Of a stretch of 64,000 bases of DNA, positions 890 through 64,000 are shown piece by piece. A program made the translations under genes and the position numbers. The notes under the pieces were generated by a model that ran no database searches, had not been told where the DNA came from, and saw only the letters and a list, made by a program, of their open reading frames with translations. Source of the stretch: Chloranthus sessilifolius (Eukaryota > Streptophyta > Magnoliopsida > Chloranthales > Chloranthaceae); assembly GCA_021018995.1 (NCBI GenBank), contig CM037590.1:63459597-63523596 (forward strand). Direction: 5' to 3'. Each line of letters begins with the position of its first letter. Positions within the stretch are counted from its first letter, which is position 1.

Positions 890-1080
890 TAAAATCAATC
901 GATTGAGATCCATAATTCAATCGATTGAGTCTTTGACAATTGTTTGTCGCTCAAGATTTGAATTTAAACTCAATCGAGTGAAATCTGAAAATCAATCAAT
1001 TGATTTTTGAATTCAAATGAAGCCGTCATTTTTGAAATTTGAATTCAATCGATTGAATCTTGTAATTCAATTGATTGACT
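890..1080. repeat. Palindrome cluster in the left LTR (CAATCGATTG type)
   Basis: Six near-copies of the palindrome CAATCGATTG, some mutated to CAATCAATTG or CAATCGAGTG, are spaced mostly at about 22 bp with different sequence between them. The same cluster is at 7075-7265 in the right LTR. It lies just upstream of the TATA-like box, that is in the likely U3 control region. Confidence 0.8.
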
Positions 1081-1109
1081 TATATTTGGCAAATTTTCTA
1101 TCCGAGCCC

Positions 1110-1117
1110 TATTTAAA
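1110..1117 (+). promoter_or_regulatory. TATA-like box of the left LTR
   Basis: TATTTAAA is conserved at the same place in both LTRs (7291-7298 in the right one), just downstream of the palindrome cluster. This is the expected place for a pol II start site between U3 and R. The start site itself is inferred. Confidence 0.45.
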
Positions 1118-2189
1118 CAAAGCAGTATTTAGGGTTTAGAGATCTTCTTTTGTTTTTGAGGGGGTCTCTCATTTTGGGGAGCCTTTTATTTTTCTTAACA
1201 TTTTTAGTTTTCTTTTAACCTTTTCCTTTTCTTTTTCAAGCATTTGTTCTTTCAATTTTCTAGCTTTATGATTTAGATTAGTTTCTTTTGCTGGATTAAA
1301 GAAGATTGTACCGATTAGATTAAAGCTTTTGTGGAATTGTTTAAGAATCTTTTACGGTATTTTAATGTTATTTTCATTTTATCTTTCAATTATATCTTTC
1401 ATTTTTAGTATGCATAGTTAAATCTTTTTTAGGATGGGGATCTAATAAGTCTCATCCAAAGTTTTCATTTATAATAATATATATCTATAGTTGTGATATT
1501 ATTTCATCAAAGATGCCTTGATCATCAATGCCTAATTGCTCTTACCGAATTAGTAAATTTTCGATTTCCATCTAAGATAGGAGTGCTAATACCACTCCCA
1601 TAATCTCGAATTTGCAATAGGGAATTTACTCCGGGTTCTTTGTTGATAATATTTGTGACATTAATTCATCATTACGGTAGATGTTTTGCCCTATTTTACA
1701 GCATTAATTTACCGTCATTAGAAGTCCCTTTTACGATGAATGTTTTGCCTCATTTCCTTTGTGACAGTAAGAAGAGCATGCATTAAAATTATTTTCGTGA
1801 ATTAATTATCACATTTTCTGTAAATTATTGATTGAGTTCAACATTTACGTGATTGCATCTTGTGACGATATTGTATCTCAACCGTTAGATCTATATTTTG
1901 TAAATGGTAAATCAAGGATGGGAGGAGTTAGCATCCCGATCCTCTCTTCATTCTTCATTTAAGTTAATTTTATTACTTAGTTTTTATTCTCATTATACTC
2001 TTGAAAATTCATAAACTAGTTTAAATCTTGTGTTAAATTTGTAATAGTTTTTTTAGTTAATTATTATTTCCTCTTGATAATTTTCTAACCAATCTCCATG
2101 GGAAGGATCTCGTACTCCGCACCCACTCACTACAATCCGATTCGTGCACTTGCAAGTTTAAAATAATATTTAAAATCACAACAAGTTTA

Positions 2190-3661: not shown

Positions 3662-3699
<38 letters not shown>

Positions 3700-3714
3700 A
3701 TTATCGGTAAAATC
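2208..3714. repeat. AT-rich low-complexity leader with TTTGAATTTGAA-type runs and an (AT)n tract
   Basis: About 1.5 kb made almost wholly of A and T, with repeated words such as GAATTTGAATTT, TTTAGGATC and AAATAAATAAAT. It contains two diverged copies of a segment of about 250 bp (around 2420-2650 and 2925-3160; compare the TTAGGATCTTTAGTTTATT words). An (AT)n tract lies at about 3667-3697, just before the gag-like ORF. Short hydrophobic reading frames here follow from the base composition and are not called as genes. Confidence 0.75.
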
Positions 3715-6816: not shown

Positions 6817-8372
6817 TGATGAGGTGTGAAATATGATCATATTTCACACCCTAAAACCTATATTTAGCCACTCGATGAAGGTAATCTGATAGCTATTGCA
6901 CAGTTTTTGTGGTTTCAAGTATTCATGACCGTTGAATCTTGCAAGAGCGTAATTGAGCATAATTAAAGGCTATAAGGGAGTATTGAATTATAAAGCCAAC
7001 GAAAGCACCGAAAATAGTGAAGGAATCGATTGATTCAGTAGAAGATAAAGAGAACTATAGTTGTCATATGTCAAAATCAATCGATTGAGATCCAGAATTC
7101 AATCGATTGAGTCTTTGACAATTATTTGTCGCTCAAGATTTGAATTTAAACTCAAACGAGTGAAATCTGAAAATCAATCAATTGATTTTTGAATTCAAAT
7201 GAAGCCGACATTTTGGAATTTGAATTCAATCGATTGAATCTTGTAATTTAATCGACTGACCTATATTTGATAAATTTTCAGTTCGAGCCCTATTTAAACA
7301 AAGCAGTGTTTAGGGTTCAAGGGTCTTTTTTTTTGGGGGGGGGGGGTAGAGCCCTTTGGGGAGCCTTTAATTTTCCTTAGCATTTTTAGTTTTCTTTTAG
7401 CCTTTCCCTTTTCTTTTTCAAGCATTTGTTCTTTCAATTTTCTAGCTTTATGATTTAGATTAGTTTCTTCTGCTGGATTAAAGGGGATTGTACCGATTAG
7501 ATTAAAGCTTTTGTGGAATTGTTGAAGAATCTTTTACGGTATTTTAATATTATTTTCATTTTATCTTTTAATTATGTCTTTCATTTTTAGTATGCATAGC
7601 TAAATCTTTTTGAGAATGGAGATCTAATGAATCTCATCCGAAGTTTTCATTTATAATAATATATATCTATAGTTGTGATATTATTTCATCAAAAATGTCT
7701 TGATCATCAATGTCTAATTGCTCTTGCGGAATTAGTAAATTTTCGATTGTCATCTAAGATACCACTCCTATGATCTCAGATCTGCAATAGGGAATCTACT
7801 CCGGGTTCTTTGTTGATAATATTTACGACGTTAATTCATCGTCATTAGGAGTTTCTCTTTTACGGTAGATGTTTTGCCTTATTTTGCGGCATTAATTTAT
7901 CGTTATTAGAAGTCTCTTTTATGATGAATATTTTGCCTCATTTCCTTTGCGGCAGTAGGAAGAACATGCATTAGAATTATTTTCGTGAATTAATTATCAT
8001 ATTTTTCATAAATTATTGATTGAGTTCAATATTTACGTGATTGCATCTTGTGACGATATTGCATCTCAACCGTTAGATCTATATTTTGTAAATGGTAAAC
8101 CAAGGATGGGAGGAGTCAGCATCCCGATCCTCTCTTTCATTCTTCATTTAAGTTAATTTTATTGATTAGTTTTTATTCTCATCATACTCTTGAAAATTCA
8201 TAAGCTAGTTCAAATCTTGTGTTAAATCTATGGTAGTTCTTTTAGTTAATTATTATTTCTTCTTGATGATTTTCTAACCAATCTCCGTGTGAACGATCTC
8301 GTACTCCGCACCCACTCACTACAATTTGATTCGTGCATTTGCGAGTTTAAAATAATATTTAAAATCACAACA
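6817..8372 (+). repeat. Right LTR of the 7.7 kb element
   Basis: It is the partner of 635-2183 with scattered substitutions and small indels. It keeps the canonical TG..CA ends. It starts with a 28-bp perfect palindrome (6823-6850; half-site GGTGTGAAATATGA), carries the palindrome cluster at 7075-7265, a TATA-like box at 7291 and a G10 run near 7336. Confidence 0.9.
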
Positions 8373-8472: not shown

Positions 8473-8823
8473 CATTTGCCAGTGATAATGATGTGTCATC
8501 AACATAGACGAGTACAAAGGGTTTTTTGAAGACCCGATAATGCAAGTGACAAGTGAATAATTGGCACGAGATTGTTTAAATCCAACATCCAATAATCCTC
8601 TAGAAAATTTTGCAAACCAATTTCGAGAGGCTTATTTAAGTACATAAAGGAACTTGTTTAATCGACAAACTCTAGTTTCCCCCTCTTCACAAAAATCGGG
8701 TGAAATTTTCATGTATACTTCTTTAGCGAGGTCCCCATGGAGAAATGCATTATGGACATCAAATTGAAGTAAGGACCGATCATGAATAGCAGCGAGAGCA
8801 AGGAGGCAACATATAAAACTAAC
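8473..8823 (-). pseudogene. Ty1/copia pol relic, central reverse transcriptase
   Basis: Minus-strand translation gives the copia RT core: CLLALAAIHDRSLLQFDV, HNAFLHGDLAKEVYMKI, SPDF, then LNKFLYVLK, a stop, ASRNWFAKF, and on to LVYVDDTSLSLAN with the catalytic YVDD at about 8495-8506. The order and spacing match the family. An in-frame TAA after LYVLK and frame changes show that it is dead. Upstream it joins the piece at 10565, across the 1.74 kb LTR element that inserted here. Downstream it joins 430-595. Confidence 0.85.
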
Positions 8824-9272
8824 TATTGGCTTATAAAAAAAGCTATATCTTTGATCATCACTGTTGGCTTAAAAAAAGCTTTCCCAAAATGATTATAGTG
8901 GAAACACAATAAAACATATTAAATCGGAGATGCATGATCAAGGAGATCCACGCAGAACTCCTAAAAAGAACACAATAGACGACTCTTAAAACTATATATT
9001 TTATATATTACCAAATACACTTACAAAAGACTTTGGTTCACAAACTCTAATGGTGTGTCTCTTCTCTTTCTTTTTTGCTCTCTCTAACTTGACATAGACA
9101 CAATGACCCTTTTATTGACTATTAGGACCTAAACTTAGTGCATAACAATTAATGCACATTTTACACTTTTTTAGACACTCATTAATATTACACATAATTC
9201 AAAATGAATCTAACTTAATTGACACACTTAACTAGGAATGACTCTTAGTAATCTACCCATCACACTTCGGTT
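8824..9272 (-). repeat. 3' LTR of the dsRBD-carrying element
   Basis: It matches 10116-10564 base for base in length (449 bp) with scattered substitutions. The plus-strand start is TATTGGC here against TGTTGAC in the other copy. A tandem AAAAAAAGCT duplication lies near the start in both LTRs. Confidence 0.85.
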
Positions 9273-10114: not shown

Positions 10115-10115
10115 C

Positions 10116-15528: not shown

Positions 15529-16171
15529 TGACGGGAATTCAGATCGGCATATTTGGACCGTGGCCGAGACAATCGAAAGAAATCAGCAAGGAAGAAATAG
15601 ATTCATAAATGGGCTTTCAAACGGCTCGCGAATAAGACGAAAATCTGAGAATTTCGATCAAATGAAAATTTCAATCGAACGATTTTCAATTTCGATCGAA
15701 ATTGCGCCGAGCAATTTTAGTTGCTTTAAACTTCTAAATTCGAACTTTAGTTTTAAGGGTATATTTGTCTTTTAGTTAATATTCGTTTTAGAATTTTCTT
15801 AGCCTATATAAAGGCATTGTAAACACTTTATTAGGGGAGTTAATTATTGATATTGAATGAAAGAGAGTTGCTTTTGTGCAAATCCCAGAGAGTTTGTGAA
15901 AAGTTTTCAATCGAGAAAATGAATCCTTCAAACCCTGAGGAGTGAGCAATCATTTCTCGTGCGACTTGGTGCGAAGCCCACATACAGCCATGGTGTGAAG
16001 CTTCGGAAAACCCGTTGGCATGAAGCCGACAGCCTCTTTGGAGCGAATCCGAAGATTTCTACTTTATTCTTCTTTTTATTTTTATTTTAATGAAAGGTTT
16101 GAATACCCTAAACCCCCTTCCGCTCGAGAATTTGCTATTTTAGGGTTAGCAGGCGACTTCGTCCCGCATCA
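15529..16171 (+). repeat. LTR A of the tandem element
   Basis: It begins TGACGGGAATTC and ends CCCGCATCA. It is 643 bp, shorter than B and C because it has a shorter run of TTCGATCGAA words (15650-15710). A TATATAAA box lies at 15805-15812. Confidence 0.88.
15805..15812 (+). promoter_or_regulatory. TATA box of LTR A (also at 17351-17358 in B and 18911-18918 in C)
   Basis: TATATAAA in the conserved context TTAGCCTATATAAA occurs in all three LTRs, about 100 bp after the palindrome cluster. It is a likely pol II promoter element. Confidence 0.6.
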
Positions 16172-16175
16172 ATTT

Positions 16176-16187: not shown

Positions 16188-16200
16188 ACAATTGTCCATC

Positions 16201-17027: not shown

Positions 17028-17717
17028 AACAATCGAAGGAAATCAGCAAGGAAGAAATGGGCGTATAAATAGACTTTCAAACAGCCCGCAAATAAGACAA
17101 AAATCTGAGAATTTCGATCGAACGATTTTCAATTTCGATCAAATAAAAATTTTGATCGAACGATTTTCAATTTCGATCGATCGAAATTGCTATCAAAATT
17201 GTGATCGAAAATTTCGATCGAACGATTTTCGATTTCGATCGATCAAAATCACTCCGAGCAATTTTAATTGCTTTAAACTTCTAAATTCGAACTTTAGTTT
17301 TAAGGGTATATTTGTCTTTAGTTCATATTCATTTTAGGGTTTTCTTAGCCTATATAAAGGCATTGTAAACACTTTATTAGGGGAGTTGATTATTGATATT
17401 GAATGAAAGAGAGTTGCTTTTGTGCAAACTCCAGAAAGCTTGTGAAAAGTTTTCAATCGAGGGAGTGAATCCTTCAAACCCTGAGGAGTGAGCAATCATT
17501 TTTCGTGTAACTTGGTGCGAAACCGACGTATAGTCGTGGTGTGAAGCTTCGGAAAACCTGTTGGCGTGAAGCCGACAAGCCTCTTTGGAGCGAATCCGAA
17601 GATTTCTACCTTATTCTTCTTTTTATTTTATTTTAATGAAAGGTTTGAATACCCTAAACCCCCTTCCGAGCGGGATTTTGCTATTTTAGGGTTAGCAGGC
17701 GACTTTGTCCCGCGTCA
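16988..17717 (+). repeat. LTR B of the tandem element
   Basis: It starts TGACGAGAAATTC, ends CCCGCGTCA and is 730 bp. It carries the fullest palindrome cluster of the three (17110-17250, TTTCGATCGAACG and TTTCGATCGATCGAAA words). Confidence 0.88.
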
Positions 17718-17746
17718 GTTTTGGTATCAGAGCACAGTTGTCCATC

Positions 17747-18679
17747 ATGAGTAAAGATCAATTTATCGAAGCCTTGCACAAGTTGAATGGATTCATGATG
17801 GCTAGAATGGGATCGTTCGTGGATCGGCGAAGGCTCCTTGATTTATATCAAACGATTGGTAAGATTAGACAAGCTTGGGAGGCAGTAAAAATTAGATCGC
17901 AGAGTCTGAGGAATTTGGATTCAACATCTCGATATTGGTCAGCTTTATATGATCGCGCGTTTACTCTTGAGATTAGACGTGAGTTAATAGCTACGCGTGA
18001 GATAGCGGAGGCATTAAACAAGAGTCTCGTTCAAGAATTCCTTGAAGATTTTCTCTTCAAACTATAAGAAGAAATCATATCGGTAAGACATGAAGCTTTG
18101 AAATTTAAGCTTTCAAAACCCGTGTTCGGTAACCTAAAGCCCATTCAAGAAATCAAGCCCGAACCTGTGATTGTATCTATATCGATGGAAGATTCTGAAC
18201 CTATAGTAAGTCAAAGTACTTCTATGCCTATGGAAGAATCGGTGGCGTCCGTTGTTCACGCAGATCCAATTATCCGCCTTGATTATGTGTCGGAACAACG
18301 TCCGATTGACAAGTTCATACCAGTTGCTGAGACCGTGGCAGATATCGAAACCGTCGAAGAGCCCACAATCGTTGAAGTCCAAGCATCCATGATCGGCCCT
18401 ACCGAGCCCGCAATCATCGAAGCACAGGCATCTGTGATCATCCCTACCGAGTTTGAGACCATTCAAAAGTTCGAGATCCAGGGGGAACAAACATATTTGA
18501 TATCGCTTATCGATGTCGACCAAAGTTCGAGGTCGAACTTTTTCAAAGTCGAGGAGATTGGCGGGAAATTCAAATCCGCATGTTTGGACCGTGACCGAGA
18601 CAATCGAAGGAAATCAGCAAGAAAGAAATGGACCCATAAATGGGCTTTTAAACGGCCCGCGAATACGACAAAAATATGA
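17747..18679 (+). CDS. Internal ORF, copy 2, with one in-frame TAA
   Basis: An unrecognised protein of about 310 codons in a single frame, interrupted only by TAA at 18065-18067. The first part (106 codons, MSKDQFIEALHKLNGF.. to ..LEDFLFKL) is helical and charged. The second part (KFKLSKPVFGNLKPIQEI..) is acidic and P/V/E-rich, with a duplicated EEPTIVEVQAS / EPAIIEAQAS unit. The position directly after the PBS suggests a Gag-like product, but no knuckle or capsid motif is seen. The shared stop in both copies means the two parts may be separate products, or the stop may have been inherited. The last residues run into LTR C. Start: the first ATG after the PBS. Confidence 0.55.
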
Positions 18680-19278
18680 GAATTTCGATCGAATGAAAAT
18701 TTTGATCGAACGATTTTCAATTTTGATCGTTCGAAATTGCGATCAAAAATTTCGATCGAATGAAATTCAATTTCGATCAAACGATTTTTTATTTCAATCG
18801 ATCGAAATCGCGCCGAGCAGTTTTAGTTACTTTAAACTTCTAAATTCGAACTTTAGTTTTAAGGGTATATTTTTCTTTTAGTTAATATTCGTTTTAGGGT
18901 TTTCTTAGCCTATATAAAAGCATTGTAAATACTTTATTAGGGGAGTTGATTATTGATATTGAATGAAAAAAAGTTGCTTTTGTACAAACCCCAGAGAGCT
19001 TGTGAAAAGTTTTCAATCGAAGGAGTGAATCCTTCAAACCCTGAGGAGTGAGCAATCGTTTTTCGTGCGACTTGGTGCGAAGCCGATGTACAGTCGTGGT
19101 GTGAAACTTCGGAATACCCATTGGCGTGAAGCCGACAAGCCTCTTTGGAGCGAATCCGAAGATTTTTACCTTATTCTTCTTTTTATTTTTATTTTAATGA
19201 AAGGTTTGAATACCCTAAACCCCCTTCCGCGCGGGATTTTGTTATTTTAGGGTTAGCAGGCGACTTCGTCCCGCGTCA
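18559..19278 (+). repeat. LTR C of the tandem element
   Basis: It starts TGGCGGGAAATTC and ends CCCGCGTCA against the TSD CTTAG. The palindrome cluster is at 18675-18810. Confidence 0.88.
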
Positions 19279-20814: not shown

Positions 20815-23209
20815 TGTGACGACCCGACTTTTCCAATCCCTCAGGTATAGGAAAGGCCGGTTCGCCAACCTATCGAATAAACGATAAGCCGGACAAACAG
20901 GGCACATATCAGAGTAAAGCGTAATAAATATCCATAGCTAAAATAAATGCGGAAACAATTAAAAGTAAAGAACCACCGATGATGACCGATCATCATCGAA
21001 ACATGGCTCATAACAGAAATCAACGTCAAATATAAAACTATGGTATCCAACTAAAATGGGCCCACAAATTCAAGTCTAACTCTCACCACAAATAAGAAAA
21101 TCAGTAAGTTCTATACTGGGAAAAACTCCTCAGGAGGAACCTCAAGCTCTTCCTCGAGCACGTGAGTCGGGATCGATCTCACGATACGAATAGCCACGTC
21201 GATTACACGAACTTTTGACGTATAGTCGAGTGAGCTAACCAACAAAGCTCGATGAAGAAAGACATCTCTGACATTTTACTTTAACTAATATGGTTTCAAA
21301 ATAAATATCGAATATAGCTTGTCAAACATATAAGCAGATAATAAAATGAATTTAGGTGAAATCATATGTAAGATTTATTTCTAAATGTGTGAAAATAGTT
21401 TCAGAAACGAGATCACTGATGTTTGATGTCTTAGTTTCTCTAACTTCTATATGCAAAGTTCGTAATTCATGACTTAATCCTCAACTTAAAATACCTCCGA
21501 GTAAACTATATCTCGAGAGCGAGAATATAGCCGATGAGAACCCCTACCTACCATCGTCGTTCATGAACCCTTTTCAGGATGCAACAAGCCTACGTAATGA
21601 GGGAAACTTGTGTCGAAATTGTTCAGAATTTTTGAGGGTCGTTCAGTCAATCATAAAACAAATGCGATACTAATATAAATCGGATGCAAGTCTCTTATAC
21701 ATAGTTCGGGTTCTTGATTTGATTTTGAGCTTAGCGATTCGTGTTTCGAGATTCGTAGATTTAGATTTTCAGTCATTCATATCAATTTCAGTTTACAGAT
21801 GTGATTTCAATGACATATGCAAGTTTAAAGATTTTAATTCAAAATATGCATGCGAATTAAAATAAAATACTGTAAAGATGAGATTCTCCTACCTAAAACT
21901 CAGAGTTATGCGAAGTCAAGCAAGGTCCTATTGATGGCCTCTAGCCCTCAATCTACATCACAATATACGTTCATGCATTAAGATAAACTCTAATTACTAA
22001 TAATATAGACCTATTTAAGCGTTTCCTCAAAAACAAGTCAAAACAGGCAAGTTGCGTCAATCCTAGAATTTGATGTAACATTCTTATATATTTTTTACTA
22101 TAAAGACAATTGATCCATGAGTTGATCAAAATATAAAAGTTGTAGATTTTTCTATTAGCTTTCCAACGCAAAAAGAATCGTCTCAATCGAAGTTCGGGAC
22201 AAAAAGTTATGACTAAAATACCAAGGCAATGTCAAAGTTCGACAATACCTCGCTCGAGCGATGATAATAGCTCGCTCGAGCGATTTGACGTAACCTTCTC
22301 ATATATTTTTGACCATCAAGATAATTGATCCATGAGTTGGTCAAAACATGAAAGTTGTAGATTTTTCTATTAGCTTTCCAACGCAAAATGAATCGTCTCA
22401 ATCGGAATTCGGGATAAAACGTTATGACTAAAATACTAAGGTAATGTCGGAGTTCGGTGATACCTCGCTCGAGCGATGATAGAAAGAGCTACAATGACGC
22501 GATTTCGCTGGTTTTCACCCGAATCGAAACCCATACATCCCAAAGAAAAACCTATGGCTAATCTAATGATTTAATCAAAAAGTTTAATTAAAACGTACCT
22601 TTAATCTAAGGATTCCTAGATTAGAAATGAGTCACGCGAATGGAGCTTCGGAACGAAACCGACGGGTTTCCTCAACGATTCGCGCCGCGATCGATCCCAC
22701 GAGTTCACAGAGACAACTCCAACACGCCCCCAATGATCTCAACCTCTCCCAATAGCCAACTATGAATCCAAGGTTGATTCAAGTTCTTTCTAAGGTTTAA
22801 GTGCTTTCAACAAAGAGGGTTCTAGAGAATGAGGTTTTCTAAACCGATCTCATACGATGATTGAAGAAGAGAGAAGACGGAGTTTCACACGGTTGGATAA
22901 CTATCCTCTCTTAACAAAACCTAGTATAATACGGGAATGCAATTCCTTCTTATAATAGGATTGCTCACAAAGTAAAACACACACACACATCTTATGTATT
23001 ATACACTTCTAATTTTAAAACTCAAGTCCGGTGTTGAGCGGCTACACCGAGGTCGGTGCACAACTTTCGCACGAGGGTCCAAATGGGCTCTAAATTAAAA
23101 TATGTGCGCACAATCACATCTAGATAAAAATTCAAAACAAATGGTGACGTCGGTTGCCGGCGAATACACACAGGTCGGCCTAACTGGGTTCAAAATACGA
23201 GTCTTTACA
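20815..23209 (-). repeat. 3' LTR of the Tekay-like element
   Basis: It is 2395 bp and aligned with 28680-31045. Sense order (right to left): two CGCTCGAGCG palindrome clusters (22460-22480 and 22245-22285) interleaved with two copies of a GTTGGAAAGC..CTACAACTTT block (22136-22216, 22347-22428), then AGGTAGGAGAA (about 21885), a GACGATGG block (21541-21562), GAGCTTTG..GTTAGCTCACTC (about 21240) and the terminus. A (CA)n tract is at 22977-22988. Confidence 0.9.
22245..22480. repeat. Palindrome cluster CTCGCTCGAGCGA in the 3' LTR
   Basis: Two CGCTCGAGCG palindromes 22 bp apart at 22245-22285 and one more at 22460-22480. They are matched at 30062-30105 and 30278-30325 in the 5' LTR, where the last is partly mutated. 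Confidence 0.8.
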
Positions 23210-45049: not shown

Positions 45050-46193
45050 ATATTGATAGACCACTTTCATGCATATGGCACACCTTTGGTTAATTCAAAT
45101 AGTTCAACTAGTACCCACAAGGCCACAATTGGCACGTGCCTCAGCCAAAGAATCAAAGTAATAAGAGCTCTGGTATTATCACATTGATGCACTTAAGTAT
45201 CAACTATTGGAAAAAAATATATCCAACCTTTTTTATTAGAATGTATGAATCGGTTCAAATTCTACAATGGATAGATCTTTGAGCCTATGGTTCTTCAATT
45301 AAGGGATTATATATGCTTTACATGAATTCTTTTCACTGCCATAGGTTTTTGCTTACATGAATTCTTTTTACTGACATTTTGCAAGGCTCGTTTATTAGTA
45401 ATATTTCTCATGTTTTCCACGAATCGGGTCGGCTTCTCATTGGGCAGCCAAAATTTTGGCCGGCTCTACCAAAATGTAAGTGTTTTACTGGCGCTAGATT
45501 TTCCTTTCGATGCTTTTCATGCGACAAGTACAATATTCTTAAATGGTCTTATCCCCACACATTGTTGTTGCACTTCCCATAGGACCCAGACCACTAAAAA
45601 TATTTTTTTTGAAGATTTTCTTGCAAGTTTGAAATATTTTAAACAATTTAGAATTCTTTACACAGATTTGAAGCTGTCATTGTTGTATTTCTTTGACAGT
45701 GCGAGATATGCAGTTAGTATTATAATTGTAATTTGCACTAATATGAAGTCAGAAAACTGTTTCATATCTAATGGGTCCATATCAGCTGAAAAGAAAACTT
45801 TGCCAACGCCCTTGGATCTGTCCACCTTTGAGTGAAAGATAGCCTCTAAATAGCTCCCTTTCTCGTTTATAATTTCCGTTCTCACTGCCTTTACATTTTG
45901 TATTTTCGAAGCCTTATTACTTTGTTCTTTTGCTACTAATATGTAACTTCATCTAATTTGTTGCCTACTTATAAGAATTGCACCCAAAATGTTTTGCATG
46001 TCCCCCTCCCCTCAAGCCTTCTGCTTGATAGGTTTACTATTGTAATTTAAATGTCCTTTACGCAGAGCAAAGAGCATTTTAGTATGGACTGTTTGTGGTT
46101 GTTAGTTCTCAATAGTATGGACTATGTTAACCATTTAGTTTCTAAACATTTGGGCGTTGCTTGTAATTTTTATCTGGCAGGTACCATGAAACG
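45050..46193. other. Unrecognised sequence upstream of the PB1-like ORF
   Basis: An imperfect tandem duplication TTACATGAATTCTTTTNACTG occurs at 45320 and 45355. The end (TTTTTATCTGGCAG|GTACC, 46167-46184) resembles a 3' splice site just before the next ORF, so part of this stretch may be a 5' UTR intron. Confidence 0.35.
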
Positions 46194-48013
46194 ATGAATG
46201 ACAACACCCTGTCAATGATATATTGTTACAATGGATATATCGAGTACAATAATGAATTTGGTTCCTACCATGGGGGGAAACGAAAAAGCAGGAGTGTCAG
46301 AAGGGACATATCATACGACGATTTCATTAAGGATATGTGTGACGTAAGCAAATGGACGGGTGACCATTCCATACCTACGTTTCAATACTCATACTACGTA
46401 GAAGGTAAGCGGAACATGGTCCTTGATCTAGAGAGTCCTTACGATCTTCAGCAGATGATTGAAACAGTCCCAAATGATTGTCGATGTATTATTATGTACT
46501 TCATCAAACCCCCAACGGACTCCGAGTCTGTTGTCGGCATTAACCGTGAAGGAATGCGTAGAGCAAAGTCAAAGCAGAGCATTCAGCTCTCTTCAAAGAA
46601 GCCTAAGACCGTAGCGGGTTCTTCACAACCCAAAATCACTATGGGTTCTTCGCAACCTAAGACCACCACGGGTTCTTCGCAACCACCACAAAATCCTCCA
46701 CCGCAAACCACTGCTGAGCAACTAGCTCCTTCTCAAGCGCCCCAACCAGACCGACCAAACAAATGGTGGGCCGAGAAGGGATTTGCTTATGAGTATACCA
46801 TTGATCCGGCGCTTTTCGAAATGCCCAATGTGCCTGGCATTGATGCTTAGGCACTTGACTATTTGGGTAAAGCCGGTTTGGATAATCTTCTGAAACCCAT
46901 TCACCGTACTATTATCCGTGCCTCGTGCGCTTATTTTATCAAAACATGTTTGATGGTCCTAATCCTGCAACCACCATCTGCACAAAGATCGATGGGAAGA
47001 CATACGTTTTTACACATGCGATGGCCTGCAAGGCCTTGGAATGTTTTGAAGTCTATGGCCCTGGAATTAACTTGTTGCCCCCAAATCCTCCAAATCTGAC
47101 CCATCTTTACGTAGTGGAGAGAATGACTCAAGGGCGAGTTGCACCTGGTAGAGCAATCAAACGAGCGGACCTACCGAGCTAGATGTGGATGCTCGATACA
47201 ATCTTCAAGTGCAACCTGTACCCGATCCGCCACAAAAATGAGAGATTAGGGGTGTTGATGGAAGCGCTATTTGCCGCTTTTGAGGGCAAATGGTTTGATG
47301 CAGCTGCAGTTATATTTGAGGGGATAAAACATGGGAGGAAGAAATTGTTGGCAGGGGCAGAAAAGCCCGAGGATTACATTCCTTATGCAAGCTTTATCAC
47401 TGCGATGTTTGATGAGTATTCTGCAACCTCGGTGCATAAGATTTCTTCGAGGGAACCTGAGTCCTCAGATATCGAAGTTTTCTACACCTTCAAGCAATGG
47501 AGGAAGACCTTCAATCAGCTGAAACCACACCTTCAGCCAACTCTTCAAGTGCCTCCTATCCCTCCTCAACCTCAAGAAGAACCTGCCCAAGGTGCGCCAT
47601 ATCAAAACCAACCTGCTCCCAATGTGCCACTTCAAGATCAACCTGAAGTCATCCCTCCAGTTCATCAGCCACCTCATATGCCAGTACCACCCGACCATCA
47701 AGCAGCTCCGATCACTAATGAGGCGTTGGCTACTCTCATTTAGGAGAGTAATTGCCAGCTCAATCAGCACCTTGATTACTATGAGCTGCTCGTGGAAGAC
47801 GTTTTGCACGCCATGTACCCTACCAACTACGTTCAGAGGATGGCAGCCATGGGTGCGCGAGTATTTGGCGCTTCTACGTCAGACACTGCTACTGAGGACT
47901 CATGGCCTGATGAGGCTGCCAGTGGGGTTCACGCCGAGGAGGAGACGGAAGACGTGGCAGATCCTACTAGAGCGGCGGATCCTGCTGGAGCGGCAGGTGG
48001 GGCTGATGCATGA
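46194..48013 (+). pseudogene. Fused ORF: MULE-type PB1-like domain + P/Q/S linker + plant-retroelement domain
   Basis: Residues about 1-105 (MNDNTLSMIYCYNGYIEY.., RRDISYDDFIKDMCDVSKW, FQYSYY, IIMYFIKPP) match the N-terminal PB1-like domain of the MULE at 53637-59677. A repeat linker follows (three GSSQPK-type units, then P/Q-rich) running straight into WWAEKGFAYEYTIDPALFE, IIRAS, then in another frame VRLFYQNMFDGPNPATT, DGKTYVFTHAMACKALE, DTIFKCNLYPIRHKNERLGV. This resembles the 'putative plant transposon protein' domain seen in many plant LTR elements. Lesions: one frameshift (about 46920) and three in-frame stops, all TAG (46848, 47180, 47744). A proline-rich and then an acidic A/D/E-rich tail ends at 48013. 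The PPT and LTR downstream indicate a retrotransposon internal region. Confidence 0.65.
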
Positions 48014-48395: not shown

Positions 48396-50950
48396 TGTAA
48401 CGTCCCTGAGTTCTAACCTATGAACTATATGCCTCCGTATACGTGCCTAACGATCCATACGTCGAGGATCGTGTCGATGGACTATGTAATGTCTATAGAT
48501 CAAATCCGACGGATCAGACTTCGTATAAGTAGGCTAGGTTATGAGTTAGTGAACACACGTTCACCAACCTTGGTGTAGGTGTGTTATACCTAAGCCTAAG
48601 GTTTAGTTAAAAGGGGAAATAAATACCCTTTAATCACTTGCATTCAATACCTTTTACTGCATATGATTAGTAGTTAAGAGGAGAGAGGGTGAAACGGGTA
48701 TTGAATGTGAATTGCATGCGTGATCGATCCGTTCTCGAGGCTTGCTGCGAAGGGTTTGGAGCGACGAATAGCCGTTGTTCGCTTGGTGAAACCCTAATCC
48801 GATCTAGAAGTAAGGATTGGAGATTCTGAGGAAATCAAGGTATGAAATTAAAGACAGATGTTAAAATTACGTTAATTATTATTTTATGCAATTTAGGATC
48901 AAAAGAAATCATAAGAAGGGGGTTGATTTCAGAAAGAAAAGAGAAAGAATGCGAAAAACTCAAGAACAGAAAGAATCTATTCATTTTGACCAATCGAAAT
49001 TGAGTTCGATCGATCAAAATGGACTTAAGGAGGAAGAATTCAAAGTCTGGAGGAATTCCTTCGATCGAAATGATATTCAACCGAACGAAGTGTGTTTCGA
49101 TAATCGAATCTCCCACTCGATCGATCGAAACATATAAAACAGAGATTTTGAAAAAGTCTGTTGTGAGGATTCGACCGATCGAAATATCCTCGATCGATCG
49201 AATTAAAATTCATTCGATCAAACTGTGCAGATTGTTATTTAGCTTCTGAGGGATTCGACCGATCGAAATATTTTCAATTGATCGAATTATGTGATTTCGA
49301 TCGATCGAACTGTGTTGTAGTCATTTGGCTCTGTGAAGATTTGACCGATCGAAATTATTTTCGATCAATCAAATTTGTGTTCGTTCGATCGAAATGGCAG
49401 AATCGTTCGATCGAATTGAGAGGTGATATATGCTTTGAGGAGTTCAACCGATCGAAATGAGATTCGATCGATCAAAATCGGGTTTCGATCGATCGAAATA
49501 GGGATTCGATCGATCAAAATTGCCAAATTCAGGATTTTGTTGTGTTTTGACTGTGAGATTTTGAGGGGAGTTGTCAGAGTATGTTTAGCATAGTTCTAAT
49601 GTGTGAACCATGGATTTTATATGTTTAGGTGACCTATCGTTGTATGACGAAGGATAAACCCAAGCGGCGGATTGAGCGCATGCGGGTTAAGATTTTGAGG
49701 TAGGGAACACTTGATATCATGTGTATTTACTACATTAGCATGTGTGTTATGTTATGATGCAAATTTTGATTCAATCATATGAATTTCGTTTGACTATAAT
49801 TTGAAAAGGCATGCGTATCATCATGTTTTCGAATTCCGTAAGAAGTATGGAATCTTTCGAGATTCACTCCAATTTATGTATGTGTGTGTGATCTTCACAT
49901 TTTATTCCGACTTTTGAGCTAAACTATAATTATTACTTTACACGGTGATAAGCTATATGTATGCACTTCAATTTAAGGTTATATGAATACCCGACCGATG
50001 GGGCGGTATAATCGTGACTGACGCGGCAGGATATCCGTGACCGGTACGGCGGCCAATCCGTACACCCTTTGTGCTATGTGTTTTCTGACTCCTATCGTAT
50101 AACGGTAATTGTGTTTGGCCAAGGGTCCACCTTTTGGGACCTTGGATATATGTGAAAAAGGATTCATATGAGCGACGATGGTGGGTATTCCATCAGGGGC
50201 TTGAGGCTATAGTTCCTTATTCAAATACTTTAAGTAAAGAACTTTTAAGTTTTCTTTTCATATGTTGGAATTAAAATGTGAACATGTGTTATGAATTTCA
50301 AACAAGAATTGCATGTGTCCTTCATGCCACAATAACCACACTGTGCATATGTTCTGACAAATTTTATTTCATTATACGATGAGATATATGTTTGATGTCA
50401 TAATAAGCATGCTATGAGTTTTTCCCTACTGAGCTTGGATGAATCTCATTCCTCGACTAAATGTCACAGGTTCAGGAGAAGGCATTGGAACAGAGATCTT
50501 GAAGAGGGAGGATCCTAAGTTATCTCTTTGTGAGGATCTAAAAGAACTTCCCCCTGAGTGTTATTTTCTTTGTGCGATGCCAAATATATCTGGCCTTAAG
50601 TTGAGAGATTAGGATTTTGAGATGATGTGAAGAATACTTAACTTTGGATTATAAATGTGACTTAATTCTTTTTGGTGAACCATGTTTCGGTAAGGATTGA
50701 TCCTTACCGGTGGTTCTCGTCGGTTCTCTTTCCACAGGTATTCAGATGGAATTAGAACCGTCATTTTTGAGTTGTTGATGGAACTAATGCATATTTCCTC
50801 TGTATTCTGTTATGTGAGTTAATTAGCATGGTTCTACTTTATTTTCATTGTGCAATGAGATGCTATGCTTTGCAATTCGTTCAGGATTCAACCTTAGCAC
50901 CAGCCCACTAACAGCGCGGGTTTCGGGGTGCCAAAATCTAGGCTATCACA
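48396..50950 (+). repeat. Tekay-like LTR, 2.56 kb (TCGATCGATCGA family), 3' LTR of the PB1-fusion element
   Basis: It starts TGTAACGTCCCTGAG and ends GGCTATCACA. Order: palindrome array (48995-49525), GAGGTAGGGAACAC (49697), GC-rich 23-bp minisatellite (49990-50065), GAGCGACGATGGTGGG (50170), CTGAGCTTGGATGAATCTCA (50429), terminus. No matching 5' LTR was found upstream of 46194, so the element is incomplete or rearranged. Confidence 0.85.
48995..49525. repeat. Palindrome array TTCGATCGATCGAA
   Basis: About 18 full or mutated TTCGATCGATCGAA / ACCGATCGAAAT sites. In the best-kept part (49440-49525) they are spaced 21 bp apart with unlike linkers. Confidence 0.9.
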
Positions 50951-57574: not shown

Positions 57575-58145
57575 AATTTCGATTAATCGAAATTGGCCAG
57601 GAAGTTGAAGGGTCGGAGAACCCCGATTTCGATTAATCGAATTGAATTTCGATTAATCGACTTTGGATTTCGATTAATCGATTTGGGAATCGATGGAACC
57701 TCCAAAGGGGGTTGGAGGAAATAACTTAAGGAAAAATCGACTAATCGAAATGGGATTTCGATTAATCGATTTTGGTTTTCGATTAATCGATTTGGAATCG
57801 ATTAATCAACTTGTGAAACTCAACTGTTCGAACTGAGGGTCTACTTTGCGAAAAGAAGGATTTCGATTAATCGAAATTGGATTCGATTAATCGAATGAAA
57901 ATTCGACTATTCAACAAAGAAAATTGCTTTGCGAAAGAAGGATTTATTAATCGAAATTGGATTCGATTAATCGAATGAAAACTCATTTATCGCTCGAATC
58001 GTGAATGGACTTTGCGAAAAGGAGGATTTCGATTAATCGAAATTGCTTCGATTAATCGATATTGACCTTCGATTAATCGATTTTGGAAATCGATTAATCG
58101 AATCAGATTCGATTAATCGACTTTGGAATTCGATTAATCGACTGT
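57575..58145. repeat. Palindrome array TTCGATTAATCGAA
   Basis: About 20 full or partial copies of TTCGATTAATCGAA, in places with 20-21 bp spacing (for example 57625-57690), with linkers that vary. Confidence 0.9.
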
Positions 58146-58649: not shown

Positions 58650-58743
58650 CCCCACCGACGTGGCGGGATAACCACGACTGACGCGGCAGGATATCCGTGA
58701 CCGATACGGCGGCTAATCCGTAGGCCAGTACGGAGGCTTATCC
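58650..58743. repeat. GC-rich 23-24 bp minisatellite in the solo LTR
   Basis: Four units of the form GACYGAYRCGGCRGGATATCCGT stand in tandem. Two or three related units occur at 49990-50065 in the LTR at 48396. They stand out as GC-rich islands in AT-rich LTRs. Confidence 0.75.
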
Positions 58744-59677: not shown

Positions 59678-60969
59678 CCTTTATATTGTACCAACATATT
59701 CCATGCCACAAATGAAGAAGCTCAATTAACAAATATAATGATAACTAGGCCGATTCTTAAAAAAGAGATCACATTGCTAAAAAATAAATAAATAATAATA
59801 AAGCAAGGAACCTTTTGTAAAAAAATGGTATTCCCAAATAATACCCACAAACCATGTTATTAGTCGCACGATAATTTACAAAAAGTAATATGATAAACCA
59901 AGCTCCTAAGTCATCCGTATAGTTATGTAACGCATGATTTTCTTATAGAAAAATAATACTATCAAGCTTAATGCATTTTATTAAGACAACCACATAAAAA
60001 CAAAACAAGTGGACTTTTTTTCACACTGTGTGTAAGATGTCGTTCAAATCCCATGCTTACGTATAAGTAAATTAACTAATAATAGATAAAAAGATATCCA
60101 AACAAACCATAAAACATATCATAACCTGGTATGAGTCTTATAGTTTCTCTTAAAATTTACAATTTATCGTTCCCATACTTTTCAGGCATCACAACTAGTA
60201 CGTAAAACTTGCAACAAAATATATGACTGGAGTTTTAATAGTTGAAAGCAAAGTTTTAAGATATTAAGGATTGCTTATTTCCTATGCAATCCATCATAAT
60301 ACGCCCAAAAAACTAAGAAGAATCACTCTTCAAATGTACCTCATAAAAGAACTACTCACGGCACCAATTATGCAAACTGAAGAATTTCTAAACAACTTTG
60401 GAAAGCTAATGGTACCCATCAAACACAGCTATATTCAAAATATTGTCATTCAAATTTTCAATCCCACCCCTATATCAATCAAAATTCTAAATCAGATTCC
60501 AGTCTTTCCCGGCCCCTGTTTATATTTCTTTATATAATAATTCAGTGCCCATTTCACCACTAAAAAGGATTATTAGTAGCCAATATTTCTTTAGAAAAGC
60601 ATGCCTCATTTTCAAACGTTAAAAATAGCCAATAGAAGTTAAAAATAAAAAAATGAAAATGCATAATTCAAGAAATCCAAGATATTGCTAGTGTCTGCAA
60701 ATTTCATCAAACAAAGTTTTCCTTTGCGGTCATTAGCAATGCAAGTTTATTGGGAAGGGAGAGTTCATCTGTATTACAAATCATTTGCTTCCATATTAGA
60801 AGGTTTCAGTGAATGAGATAAATACAATAAATTGTTAATTGGAAAATCAGAAAGTAAGTTCTACAGCTAGATGCCATGTCAAAACGATTTAAAGAATCCC
60901 CATATGTGAATTTTGGTTCACATTTCAGCTAAATGAGGTTTCAAAACTAATGAAGCGTGAACATACTTT
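59678..60969. other. No recognised feature
   Basis: AT-rich sequence upstream of the MULE. It presumably includes the MULE promoter and 5' flank, but no TIR or other landmark was seen. Confidence 0.4.
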
Positions 60970-61255
60970 GGGGCATGGTATAAAAAAAACAGCCGATAAC
61001 GATGTGTATCGGCGATATGTATAGATTTCTCAGCAAACCGATACGTTTCGGTATCTCAACTCGGAAACCGATACTGTATCAAATGATACGGGCCAATATC
61101 GGTTGATATGTATCGGGTATCGGCTGATATGGTATCAGTTTTGGTTGCTACCTCTATTTCCTTTATTAAAAAAAATGACAGATACGTATCAACCGAGTTC
61201 TATCGATCCTCCAACGACTAATATCCGATACCAAGTCCGATTTGGATACCTTCGT
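60970..61255. mobile_element. GATACGTATC-type repeat, short copy
   Basis: The left end GGCATGGTATAAAAAAAACA and the dense GTATCGG / CCGATAC words match the family at 11568-12752, here without a long interior. The right end is GATTTGGATACCTTCG. The sequence to 61433 shows nothing else. Confidence 0.5.
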
Positions 61256-61433
61256 ATGGGGGCAATGAGCGTGAATGTATGCAACATAAGGAAAAAAAAA
61301 ATCAAGACATCTTTACTATTTAAATGCGAGAAGGCAGAATATCATCCAATCTAAATTTAAAAATAAATAAATAACTGAATGACCAAGTCATAGGTTGAAA
61401 ACAGCGCTGGCCTAGGTCCCACTTGTGACAGTC

Positions 61434-64000
61434 TGGATTTTCGCGCCCGAAAATCCGTGCCATCAGTATCATACTCTGGATAATCCCCAGGACAAATCAC
61501 GAAGTGTCTACTCGTATAGCAGAAATCGACCAGACACTGCCCAGCAGTGGTAGATCAAGTCATCATAAAGCATTTAAAATAGGAATAAACAATAAGCAAA
61601 ACTTGTATTTAACTATATCAAAAGAATATACATTCCCAAAAATGAACCAAGAAGAACCAATAGTGATGGACATCCATCACCCAAAACAATGGTTCTAATA
61701 GAATGTATAGTAATACAATAAAGTAATATCTACAGAAATAAATACAGAAAGTAGCCACCAGGCACACAATAATTTAAAGTTTATACAAAATCCCAAAATG
61801 AGCAGACTAGTATACCCAGACTACGGATAAAAATCGTCCCCCTGGACGTCAGTCTCCTCGTCCTCAGCCTCAGCCTCTAGATCAGGCTGGTAGTCAGGGT
61901 CACTCTCGGTGCCTAGAACTCTTGCCTCAGAACCTAAAATGTTAATGAAAACAGGGTGAGTTACATCATAGCTCAATAGAAGAATTCCAACTAAAATGAA
62001 TTGAATATGCAGATCATGATATCTCAAAACAGGAAATCAAGTCAGAACTTACAAACAGGACAAATCAATGTAATACCGAGCTTTTAAACAAGAAACATAT
62101 GTTATACAAGTACATGATTAGTGACTTAAATTGTGTATGTTTTCTAACTTAAGAAACTCCCGTGAATATATAACACGGAGTAAACAGGAATTTACCGATA
62201 GGAAACTCCAACCAATCGTCGTTCACATGAACAATTTTAGATTGCAACAATGCCTCATCTATGGAGTGAAATTGTGCCGAGGGATTACAAGCAGATGCAC
62301 AAGTGTGCCAGGCTCGGATATACCGCCGAGTCGGTGAGGATCATCTGGTTAAATCATCAAATCACGTACACACATAGACTTCACGAATCAGATAGCAGAA
62401 ATCAAGAGAAAGTTTCAAAATTCAAAATTAGAAAACAGAAATCAGATGTAACAGAAATTTATTATATGTTAACATGCTTGTTAAAACAGAAATCAGGGCA
62501 CAGGTATGCAAGAATCATGAAATCATAGTAAAAAATAGTTTAAGTTGGTTTTCCCCTACCTTAGAGCAGACCTCTTTCTAAGCAAATCTAAAGCCTTTTA
62601 AAGCGTCATGGTCCGATCCTAGACCATAAATATCGTATACTACGTGTCAGGTAGGTCATAAGGCAACTGGTACAGTGTCCAGTAGCATTCAATTTTCATA
62701 AACAAATCAGGACAAAACAGGGGGTGATTGATCGATCAACACCTTTATTGATCGATCAATACTCCTTGTTGATCGATCAATGTCCTCATTGATCGATCAA
62801 TACACTCAACTCCATTCATCAGTAACTGGGGTAGTTGATCGATCAATAGCCTTTATTGATCGATCAACACCCTTCATTGATCGATCAATACCTTAATTGA
62901 TCGATCAATAATCTCTTTTCTTCACACTTTAGCATAGCCAAAATTGATCAACAATGCATCCTGTTGATCGATCAATGCCCTCATTGATCGATCAATAGCC
63001 TAAAATCTCAAATTTCCCACCTTCTGTTCACATTTGTGATTTATACAGATTGATCGATCAATACACCCTAGTGATCGATCAATGCCTTTGTTGATCGATC
63101 AATACCAGTCATTGATCGATCAATCTCCTTGTGATCGATCAATGCTCACAATTGATCGATCAATTCACTAATTGATCGATCAACACCTCGCGAGCACTAA
63201 ACTTCCAGAAAAAGATCCCCTCACTGTTCCCACTTAAGTCTTATACAGATTGATCGATCAATGGCTTTCATTGATCGATCACCCAAGTATTGATCGATCA
63301 ATCTTGTCATTGATCGATCAATAATGACAGAAACTCTGTCATTAATGGAGGTCATCTATTTTCCTTATTTTTGACCCATTTTCATTAATGGTTTCTTACA
63401 ACCATTAATACACACACAACACACATATAAGAGCTCTCATCTGCCCAAATTTAAAAGCATAGGCTCACCTTTGCTTGGGCCCCTTCGGGGTTTTGGCAAC
63501 GCAACCCCACGAGGGTTTCATTCCGGCATGCAATCGACAATCAATCTATCGATTCCAAAGACGCTGGAGGTCTCACATACACGTAGACTATGCTTGGGTT
63601 CGCTTCATTGAACTCACCCTACCCTAACTCAATATGACGCATGATCTTCGCAGCTCTAACCCCACTTTCTCACAAGACATGCTCGATCTCACCTAGCCAC
63701 AGACTTCCATTCTCAAGAACTAGAGGAAGAAGAAGAGAAAACACCTCTCCAGGTCTCTCCCTTCCCTTATAAGCTACCCAAACTGAAATATCTTTAATAT
63801 TTCAGTTTATGCCCTAATTTAAAGCTTCGGTGTGAAACACTCATACGGTTTCTATGGCGTAACGTGTTACACCGCTAGACCCTTCCCCAATGCCAACATA
63901 GCTCCCTGTCCGCGCCAAAGCACGTTACCAAACATGCTCCAGATGCATGCTGCTATCAATATTTTGTTGCAGCATGGAGCGAGTGGGGAGAATTTCAAAA
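61434..64000 (-). repeat. Tekay-like LTR, minus strand, running off the window (GATCGATC family)
   Basis: The plus strand starts TGTGACAGTCTGGATTTTCG. The reverse complement matches the 3' half of the LTR at 37628-40582 in order and wording (for example GATGGACATCCATCACC, CACTTCGTGATTTGTCCT). It carries a GATCGATC array at 62715-63325. The TTGGAAAG blocks of the other copy were not found. The LTR 5' end lies beyond 64000. Short frames here are not genes. Confidence 0.85.
62715..63325. repeat. Palindrome array TTGATCGATCAA (minus-strand LTR)
   Basis: About 24 copies of TTGATCGATCAA, mostly perfect, in runs with 20-21 bp period (for example 62726-62800), broken by two or three 50-70 bp gaps. 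Linkers are all different. Confidence 0.92.

What the first reader, a model, noticed from the sequence alone, without database searches (positions are those of the whole stretch)
890..63325. Every long LTR family here carries a family-specific array of short palindromes
Six of six LTR families longer than 600 bp contain a local array of one short palindrome: CAATCGATTG (890-1080, 7075-7265), TTTCGATCGAAA (15650-15710, 17110-17250, 18675-18810), CGCTCGAGCG (22245-22480, 30062-30325), TTGATCGATCAA (38535-38875, 62715-63325), TTCGATCGATCGAA (48995-49525) and TTCGATTAATCGAA (57575-58145). The families are unrelated in part (a tRNA-Asp-primed element, a TRIM-like element, several Tekay-like LTRs), so this is recurrent gain rather than inheritance of one array. 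Only the 449-bp LTR lacks one. I infer a shared role, such as a binding platform for an element or host protein, a silencing or anti-silencing site, or RNA hairpins in the transcript. I do not know of this being described as a general LTR system, but I cannot search.
Basis: partly seen in the sequence, partly recalled or inferred. Interest (0 to 1): 0.9.

Follow-up and report, generated by a model that had tools for sequence, protein, structure and literature searches.

The report
Helically spaced palindrome arrays in retrotransposons
In this plant genome several retrotransposon families each carry rows of their own short mirror-symmetric DNA word, set about two (sometimes three) turns of the double helix apart, which looks like a docking strip for a paired DNA-binding protein, perhaps one that the element itself encodes.

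Summary
The arrays are real and genome-wide. In the window four of six families (A, B, E, F) beat 300 shuffles; C and D do so weakly or only as a repeated word; the 449-bp LTR has none. TTGATCGATCAA occurs 65,226 times against 317 for its reversed control; TCGATTAATCGA 241,617 against 55. New here: neighbours are helically phased. For seven palindromes (50 listed pairs each) the commonest spacing is 20-22 bp in six and 32 bp in one; 1 of 350 is under 19 bp. In family A, in-register units match the palindrome at 97% while distinct linkers are no more alike than chance. Also new: some array-bearing families carry an extra ORF related to Pfam PF20167, with the array just upstream of it (A, G, H, I) or in the LTR beyond it (E, F). 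Best reading: operator-like arrays for a dimeric DNA-binding protein, plausibly the element's own ORF product, as in VANC/VANDAL. Binding is untested. Family-specific palindromes in Sirevirus LTRs and upstream of ENV were described in 2010, so this is a new variant of a known kind.

The parts
890..1080 (.). family B array (TCAATCGATTGA, a 22-bp doublet plus an outlier) in the 5' LTR (637-2186) of an element with a tRNA-Asp-like primer site
   Evidence: 0 of 300 shuffles reach the LTR's count
7075..7265 (.). family B array in the 3' LTR (6819-8375) of the same element
15650..15710 (.). family D (TRIM-like) array, TTTCGATCGAAA variants, first of three LTRs (15529-16174); weak
   Evidence: not above shuffles
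17110..17250 (.). family D array, second LTR (16988-17720), variants about 20 bp apart
   Evidence: TCGATCGA 5 copies, 0 of 300 shuffles
18675..18810 (.). family D array, third LTR (18559-19281)
   Evidence: TCGATCGA 3 copies, 1 of 300 shuffles
22245..22480 (.). family C array (TCGCTCGAGCGA; 22-bp doublet and a third copy, next to a 215-bp duplication) in the 3' LTR of a minus-strand gypsy element
   Evidence: marginal against shuffles
30062..30325 (.). family C array in the 5' LTR of the same minus-strand element
38535..38875 (.). family A array, 9 TGATCGATCA cores, 20/21-bp steps, LTR ending at about 40588 (plus orientation)
62715..63325 (.). family A array, 21 TGATCGATCA cores, LTR 61422-63870 (minus orientation)
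48995..49525 (.). family E array (TTCGATCGATCGAA and shorter variants) in a 3' LTR that starts about 48397; LTR end not determined
   Evidence: 21-bp spacing in the genome-wide listing
46167..47740 (+). family E extra ORF, broken (open pieces 46167-46847, 46886-47179, 47183-47740), homologous to the 492-aa ORF of family F; ends about 660 bp before the E 3' LTR
   Evidence: third piece E about 1e-80 with the iterated HMM
57575..58145 (.). family F array, TTCGATTAATCGAA, neighbours mostly 19-21 bp apart, in LTR 56988-59579
8822..9272 (.). 449-bp LTR family without an array (negative case; partner 10114-10564)

Best explanation
Each array is a strip of operator-like sites for a homodimeric, sequence-specific DNA-binding protein. 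Each palindrome is one dimer site; a spacing of 20-22 bp (or 31-32 bp) puts neighbouring dimers on the same face of the helix so that they can touch and bind cooperatively. The strips lie in the first half of the LTR and again upstream of an extra ORF in some families. The binder is most likely the element's own extra-ORF (PF20167-related) protein, which would find its own family's copies and open or activate them, as VANC does for VANDAL elements; related families escape cross-talk by changing the palindrome. Shown: arrays, spacing, linker randomness in A, ORF conservation in F, proximity of array and ORF. Inferred: dimer binding, identity of the binder, anti-silencing or activation. Confidence: a dsDNA dimer platform about 0.8; a binder encoded by the element about 0.45.
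For: Genome-wide excess over the reversed-word control (0 control pairs in all seven pair searches). Spacing: perfect neighbours 12-35 bp apart lie at 19-22 bp in 58 of 58 (A) and 50 of 52 (F) cases; seven palindromes, 350 listed pairs: 228 at 19-23, 51 at 30-33, 39 at 40-46, 24 at 34-39, 7 at 24-29, 1 below 19. In-register middle units match the palindrome at 97.0% (A, 36) and 97.3% (F, 93), against 41-42% for the best of four offsets in window sequence; A linkers show 0.244 and 0.270 mean identity against 0.25 by composition (distinct linkers only). Extra ORF: F 492 aa (L038), dN/dS median 0.13 over 91 pairs of 14 copies; homologs in A, E, G, L019. Arrays beside it: A internal array L053:5224-5641 just before the ORF; F array about 0.8-1.0 kb after the ORF in 13 of 14 copies fetched and 1.4 kb after the longest open piece in the other; E in the window. 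Of eight loci picked by Pfam PF20167 alone, four have 3-5 copies of one palindromic 8-mer upstream (GGACGTCC or CTCGCGAG), reached by at most 0.005 of 200 shuffles. The F protein has no membrane helix by simple hydropathy (max 1.12) and a heptad-like stretch near its C-terminus.
Against: No binding, expression or methylation data. Families B, C and D have arrays, but no extra-ORF homolog was found in the copies examined (window, L003, L013, L037), so a host protein or a partner element would have to serve those. Of the eight PF20167 loci, the other four give no support: L061 two GGACGTCC (0.1 of shuffles), L059 and L060 one CTCGCGAG each, L054 no repeated palindrome. A 69-aa homolog fragment in L009 has no array nearby. 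F has the ORF but no internal array. The 14 F copies were among the best protein hits of one family, so their arrays are not independent and dN/dS is biased low. The F protein scores 29-34 bits, below the Pfam cut-off of 45, and A and E pieces do not match PF20167 at all; no solved structure matches. F linkers are not random (0.42-0.45 against 0.27-0.30), as in partly homogenised repeats. Array CpGs show deamination (F 62 of 122, A 13 of 57 single mismatches), so they are probably methylated at least at times. Hydropathy peaks of 1.8-2.0 occur in A, G and H pieces.
Confidence: 0.5

Rival explanations
1. The same phased dimer platform, but bound by host transcription factors of one family with a TCGA-type core, which the elements recruited as promoters or enhancers.
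For: All six window palindromes and family G contain TCGA; families B, C and D have arrays without a detected extra ORF; arrays mostly lie upstream of TATA-like words; Bousios 2010 compared Sirevirus motifs with known plant factor sites and mainly recovered stress-related ones (PMC2829016 section 9).
Against: The palindrome changes between related LTRs (A, C, E, F) while spacing stays; families H and I (CGGACGTCCG, CCTCGCGAGG) lack TCGA; in five families the array stands beside the extra ORF.
Confidence: 0.27
2. RNA-level role: transcripts of the arrays form hairpins and long stems that feed small-RNA silencing or packaging, as argued for maize Sirevirus palindromes.
For: Strong folding: z -13.7 (A62, 20 shuffles) and -8.7 (F57, 100 shuffles); maize small RNAs are enriched at Sirevirus palindrome clusters (Bousios 2016, seen only as cited in a passage of PMC10760457).
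Against: Any repeated self-complementary word folds well, so this is no independent sign; RNA pairing does not require 20-22 or 31-32 bp spacing with random linkers.
Confidence: 0.09
3. Rotational nucleosome positioning: words placed every two turns favour a bent, positioned nucleosome.
For: Neighbour spacing near 20.5 bp is two turns of DNA; an LTR motif with a cryptic inverted repeat that fixes nucleosomes is reported in einkorn (PMC11302176 passages).
Against: Positioning needs dinucleotide periodicity rather than an exact 10-14-bp palindrome (recalled); gaps between blocks (45, 50, 66, 69, 88 bp) break the phase; I prefers three turns.
Confidence: 0.06
4. A neutral minisatellite: 20-21-bp units spread by slippage and unequal exchange, with no function.
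For: Tandem Repeats Finder sees periods of 20-21 and 41 bp; F linkers are partly homogenised; a 215-bp duplication lies in the C LTR.
Against: Homogenisation acts on whole units, yet in A the palindrome is 97% kept while linkers are random and their length is fixed to about one base; the same spacing recurs with different words.
Confidence: 0.08

Closest known systems
Sirevirus (Ty1/copia) LTR repeated motifs (RM), Bousios et al. 2010, PMC2829016
   Same: Family-specific palindromes in high copy, mostly in the upper half of the LTR, upstream of the TATA box, with extra copies upstream of the ENV ORF (77 of 79 linker copies); tobacco Tnd-1 has ACAATCGATTGT, which contains family B's CAATCGATTG; Usier has GTCGGACGTCCGAC, which contains family H's CGGACGTCCG (section 9).
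   Different: Where domain order could be read (F, L037) the hosts are Ty3/gypsy-type; A-G have TCGA rather than CGG-CCG cores and a helical spacing rule. I found no spacing rule in that paper's main text by term searches (its one 'helical' is in a reference title); its supplementary figures were not seen.
VANC / VANDAL anti-silencing system, Hosaka et al. 2017 PMC5735166 and Sasaki et al. 2023 PMC10398659 (passages)
   Same: Element families with diverged short motifs repeated in non-coding regions, and a diverged element-encoded protein.
   Different: VANDAL are DNA transposons (Mu-like by a title cited in PMC12844716); the VANC21 motif is YAGTATTAY, and 'palindrom' does not occur in either main text. 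No binding or demethylation is known here, and homology to VANC was not tested.
PF20167 (Transposase_32) 3' additional ORF of an Athila element, sunflower, PMC11728184 (abstract and passages)
   Same: Sense ORF with partial PF20167 similarity at the 3' end of the element, predicted nuclear; the later paper PMC12844716 asks whether such ORFs modulate the epigenetic landscape, citing VANC (passages).
   Different: Here the ORF also sits after integrase in tRNA-Met-primed gypsy-type elements (L038, L053) and stands beside palindrome arrays; 'palindrom', 'inverted repeat' and 'array' do not occur in PMC11728184.

Membership tests
Sirevirus repeated motif (RM) | palindromic motif repeated at least 8 times per element | tested here: met
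   A 9 and 21 cores per LTR, F 15, E 14 overlapping TCGATCGA; perfect copies of one word in B, C and D are fewer than 8 per LTR
Sirevirus repeated motif (RM) | cluster in the upper half of the LTR, upstream of TATA | tested here: met
   arrays start at 253-725 bp and end by 1157 bp of 1550-2592-bp LTRs; TATA-like words downstream at 841 (B), about 1700-1860 (A, C, F); in E the only TATA-like word lies inside the array; A38 start and E end assumed
Sirevirus repeated motif (RM) | extra copies upstream of the ENV ORF | tested here: met
   A: L053:5224-5641 before the ORF at 5779; G: L010:6638-6816 before 7165; H: L055, L057, L058; I: L056; not in F. Whether the ORF is an ENV is open
Sirevirus repeated motif (RM) | CGG-CCG core (12 of 13 published motifs) | tested here: not met
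   A-G have TCGA; I is CCTCGCGAGG; only H (CGGACGTCCG) has it
Sirevirus repeated motif (RM) | host is Ty1/copia (integrase before RT) | tested here: not met
   F (L038) and L037 have RT before integrase; lineage of G, H, I not tested
VANC-type anti-silencing | element-encoded protein binds the motif | not testable with these tools
   needs gel shift, DAP-seq or ChIP-seq
VANC-type anti-silencing | related elements carry different repeated motifs | tested here: met
   A, C, E, F share the PPT region and LTR start but not palindromes
VANC-type anti-silencing | expression removes DNA methylation from own copies | not testable with these tools
   no methylation data; CpG deamination in arrays is equivocal
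PF20167 (Transposase_32) | reaches Pfam's curated cut-off (45 bits) | tested here: inconclusive
   F 29.3 and 34.3, G 27.2 and 12.8 bits, below cut-off; A and E pieces no hit; the 150 places scored in the family search are marked above it, and the eight sampled from these join the same iterated HMM family as F
plant ENV-like protein | transmembrane segment | tested here: inconclusive
   F ORF maximum 19-residue hydropathy 1.12 (no); pieces of A, G and H reach 1.8-2.0
Ty3/gypsy Tekay lineage | RT phylogeny or chromodomain | not tested

The most novel reading that the evidence does not exclude
The PF20167-type 'extra' or 'env-like' ORFs of plant LTR retrotransposons, across gypsy and possibly Sirevirus lineages, encode dimeric DNA-binding proteins that bind helically phased arrays of their own family's palindrome in the LTR and upstream of the ORF, and so switch on or de-silence only their own kind. 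Palindrome and protein co-evolve, and this lock-and-key is what keeps families apart in one genome.
Probability: 0.35. Interest if true: 0.92.

Novelty: new variant of a known kind. Interest (0 to 1): 0.74.

Why it matters
LTR palindromes and 'env-like' extra ORFs of plant retrotransposons have each been puzzles. If they are the two halves of one recognition system, the function of a class of unexplained ORFs becomes directly testable (one DAP-seq experiment per family), and it would show that copy-and-paste elements evolved family-specific lock-and-key control like the VANC system of DNA transposons. The helical spacing rule also gives an annotation-free way to look for such systems in other genomes.

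Tried and rejected
Protein homologs of the F extra ORF in the public protein collection: none at E 0.001 among the 7993 candidates scored. PDB by sequence: none up to E 1. Structure prediction was not run: the window's own E ORF is broken into short pieces, and ORFs from genome-fetch loci are not on that tool's list of accepted sources. Exact palindromes in papers: 152 papers hold at least one of six words; I saw only the 20 listed, none of them by title about retrotransposons; the other 132 were not seen. Literature on arrays, spacing and the ORF. Symmetric mutation patterns inside palindromes were discarded as evidence: strand symmetry alone gives them. CpG deamination is equivocal and not used for the mechanism. 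In one search identical linkers were collapsed before the identity was computed (A 35 to 29 and 24 to 24; F 43 to 24 and 73 to 37). L001 was chosen because it holds an array; L014 and L015 flank the window; the other 17 of 20 loci were arbitrary places. L021-L036 were chosen because they hold arrays.

Full report
WHAT IS THERE. The window lies in a 2.17-Gb, 32-contig genome held without a name. I call the families A (TTGATCGATCAA, 38.5 and 62.7 kb), B (TCAATCGATTGA), C (TCGCTCGAGCGA), D (TRIM-like, 15.5-19.3 kb), E (TTCGATCGATCGAA, 49 kb) and F (TTCGATTAATCGAA, 57.6 kb). Against 300 dinucleotide shuffles per LTR, perfect 10-bp palindromes exceed all shuffles in A, B, E and F and not in C or D; the 449-bp LTR has none. 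By repeats of one palindromic 8-mer, D2 and D3 stand out (0 and 1 of 300), D1 does not (277 of 300), C is marginal (6 and 11 of 300) and B5 is reached by 8 of 300.

GENOME-WIDE. Word counts against the same word read backwards, itself a palindrome: TTGATCGATCAA 65,226 against 317; TCGATTAATCGA 241,617 against 55. Pairs of the same palindrome 2-30 (A) or 2-32 bases apart: A 33,274, B 23,861, C 19,495, E 2,259, G CTTTTCGAAAAG 1,337, H CGGACGTCCG 2,643, I CCTCGCGAGG 74; the control is 0 in all seven. In a de novo scan of 20 fetched loci plus the window, palindromic 10-mers form clusters (at least 3 in 400 bp) in 17 cases against 7 for mirror words, 2 for direct and 0 for complement words. A case is one word in one sequence, so overlapping words count apart. 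Apart from the window (6) and L001 (1), 10 clusters lie in 6 of the other 19 loci; two of these 10 are AT-type words without CpG. Of 119 arbitrary 1,250-bp windows, 17 hold at least 3 copies of one palindromic 8-mer.

THE SPACING RULE. Neighbouring perfect palindromes 12-35 bp apart are at 19-22 bp in 58 of 58 cases for A and 50 of 52 for F (window and 36 loci, many chosen for their arrays). From the coordinates of the genome-wide listings (50 pairs per palindrome, seven palindromes), the commonest spacings are A 20-21, B 22, C 21-22, E 21, G 20 with a second peak at 31, H 20-21 (also 23 and 40), I 32. Of 350 pairs, 228 lie at 19-23, 51 at 30-33, 39 at 40-46, 24 at 34-39, 7 at 24-29 and 1 below 19. 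These are copies of shared families, so the independent evidence is the seven family modes, all near two or three helical turns. Larger gaps inside arrays (45, 50, 66, 69, 88 bp) do not keep the phase, so phasing holds within short blocks.

LINKERS. Where two perfect palindromes lie 40-42 bp apart, the unit between them can be judged without choosing it by its sequence: 36 such A units are 97.0% and 93 F units 97.3% identical to the palindrome, against 41-42% for the best of four offsets in window sequence. The 6- and 7-bp linkers of A have mean pairwise identity 0.244 and 0.270, the value expected from base composition (0.25); those of F are partly alike (0.42-0.45 against 0.27-0.30). Identical linkers were collapsed first. 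A neutral tandem repeat would homogenise or decay as whole units; keeping the word and the distance while the linker turns random is what a row of protein-binding sites would do. This is inference, but the alternatives fit worse.

THE ELEMENTS. A, C, E and F share a polypurine-tract region and an LTR start of TGTAA; A, C and F share an LTR end in GTCACA and a tRNA-Met-like primer site (for C seen in L003, for F with mismatches). L038, the inside of an F element, has gag, protease, RT, RNase H and integrase in Ty3/gypsy order. B has a tRNA-Asp-like primer site; a relative (L037; 81% identical over 1.8 kb) has gag, RT, then integrase, and carries TCGATTAATCGA and TCGATGCATCGA where B has its own word. 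So related elements change palindromes.

THE EXTRA ORF. Between integrase and 3' LTR, L038 has a sense ORF of 492 aa (5676-7151) with a weak match to PF20167 'putative plant transposon protein' (29 bits; cut-off 45). The genome search gave 53,099 first-look candidates, of which 87 were scored, at 80-92% identity besides the query itself. Of 14 further copies fetched, 14 have 9-15 perfect CGATTAATCG sites downstream, starting 0.8-1.0 kb after the ORF in 13 and 1.4 kb after the longest open piece in one; these are among the best hits of one family. Over 421 codons, 13 of these with a long open frame plus L038 give a median dN 0.057, dS 0.443, dN/dS 0.13 (91 pairs; L039 left out, its frame being cut); choosing by protein score biases dN low. 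Homologs at about 29-39% identity, with short stretches at 54-59%, occur in A (L053, broken), E (window 46167-47740, broken), G (L010, L006) and a fragment in L019. In A, 14 TGATCGATCA sites lie at L053:5224-5641, directly before the ORF pieces that start at 5779; A's LTR carries the same word elsewhere (window, L001; the LTR array of this very copy was not fetched). In G, CTTTTCGAAAAG-type sites lie 0.35-0.53 kb before the L010 ORF and two TTTTCGAAAA 0.23-0.35 kb before the L006 ORF. In L019 degenerate TCGACCGGTCGA-like sites lie before the fragment (read by eye). A 69-aa fragment in L009 has none.

A BLIND CHECK. I then took eight loci from the PF20167 search (150 scored places), choosing by alignment coordinates and score, not by palindromes, with about 1.25 kb upstream each (0.98 kb for L061). 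Four have 3-5 copies of one palindromic 8-mer (L055, L057 and L058 GGACGTCC; L056 CTCGCGAG; reached by at most 0.005 of 200 shuffles); L061 has two GGACGTCC (0.1 of shuffles), L059 and L060 one CTCGCGAG each, and L054 no repeated palindrome. In L057 the GGACGTCC centres run 926, 967, 987, 1028: spacings 41, 20, 41. All eight join the same iterated HMM family as the F ORF. So new ORF families came with new palindromes in half of the sample, with the same spacing where it was read.

MECHANISM. A palindrome suits a homodimer; same-face spacing suits cooperative neighbours; random linkers say that nothing else matters. The first-half-of-LTR position and the second array before the extra ORF look like control regions of two transcription units. 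The F protein has no membrane helix by simple hydropathy and a heptad-like stretch near its C-terminus, which fits a nuclear dimer better than an envelope; that is weak evidence, and pieces of A, G and H have higher hydropathy peaks. The most economical reading is that the extra ORF makes the binder. The main objections are that B, C and D have arrays without a detected ORF and that no binding was measured.

PRIOR ART. Bousios et al. 2010 (PMC2829016; section 9 read whole; passages) described family-specific palindromic motifs in Sirevirus LTRs, and upstream of ENV where there is one, in 13 elements. One of them (Tnd-1, ACAATCGATTGT) contains B's word, another (Usier, GTCGGACGTCCGAC) contains H's. 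Hosaka 2017 and Sasaki 2023 (passages) describe VANC and its motifs. PMC11728184 (abstract and passages) reports a PF20167-like 3' ORF in a sunflower Athila with a predicted nuclear signal, and PMC12844716 (passages) asks whether LTR-element ORFs modulate the epigenetic landscape. Other passages read: PMC10760457, PMC11963269, PMC7264820, PMC11302176, PMC10342631. Bousios 2016 and Sasaki 2022 are not held. I found no statement of a helical spacing rule, of such arrays in Ty3/gypsy LTRs, or of the array-ORF pairing in Ty3/gypsy elements in searches, which cover open-licence papers only and of which I saw listings and the passages named.

VERDICT.

Noticed in passing
L011 (G000:C6:9000001-9010000), about 3950-4700: A run of odd-centred near-palindromes of the type GTCAAA-N-TTTGAC, seen by eye; possibly another array family.
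   Followed up: no
G000:C1:2899376-2912636: Many TCAATCGATTGA pairs in several clusters over 13 kb, far denser than in the window's family B LTRs.
   Followed up: no
L037 (G000:C1:458601-468600): A relative of the window's family B element (81% over 1.8 kb) carries TCGATTAATCGA and TCGATGCATCGA instead of CAATCGATTG: palindrome change inside one lineage.
   Followed up: partly
L038:3659-5689: In the F element the integrase ORF stops just after the catalytic core and overlaps the extra ORF; no SH3_Tf2-1 match, unlike the family C element.
   Followed up: no
15529-19281: A TRIM-like element with three LTRs and two internal parts, as from a tandem insertion; primer sites at 16176 and 17722.
   Followed up: partly
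22068-22481 and 29885-30315: A 215-bp direct duplication inside the family C LTR, in the stretch that holds the CGCTCGAGCG copies.
   Followed up: no
2299-3700: AT-rich, self-similar region inside the family B element, with many short tandem repeats; a similar region in L013.
   Followed up: no
34019-35869 and 54173-55520: A reverse transcriptase ORF (RVT_1, with zf-RVT at 32971-33468; non-LTR type by recall) and pieces of a MULE/MuDR transposase.
   Followed up: no
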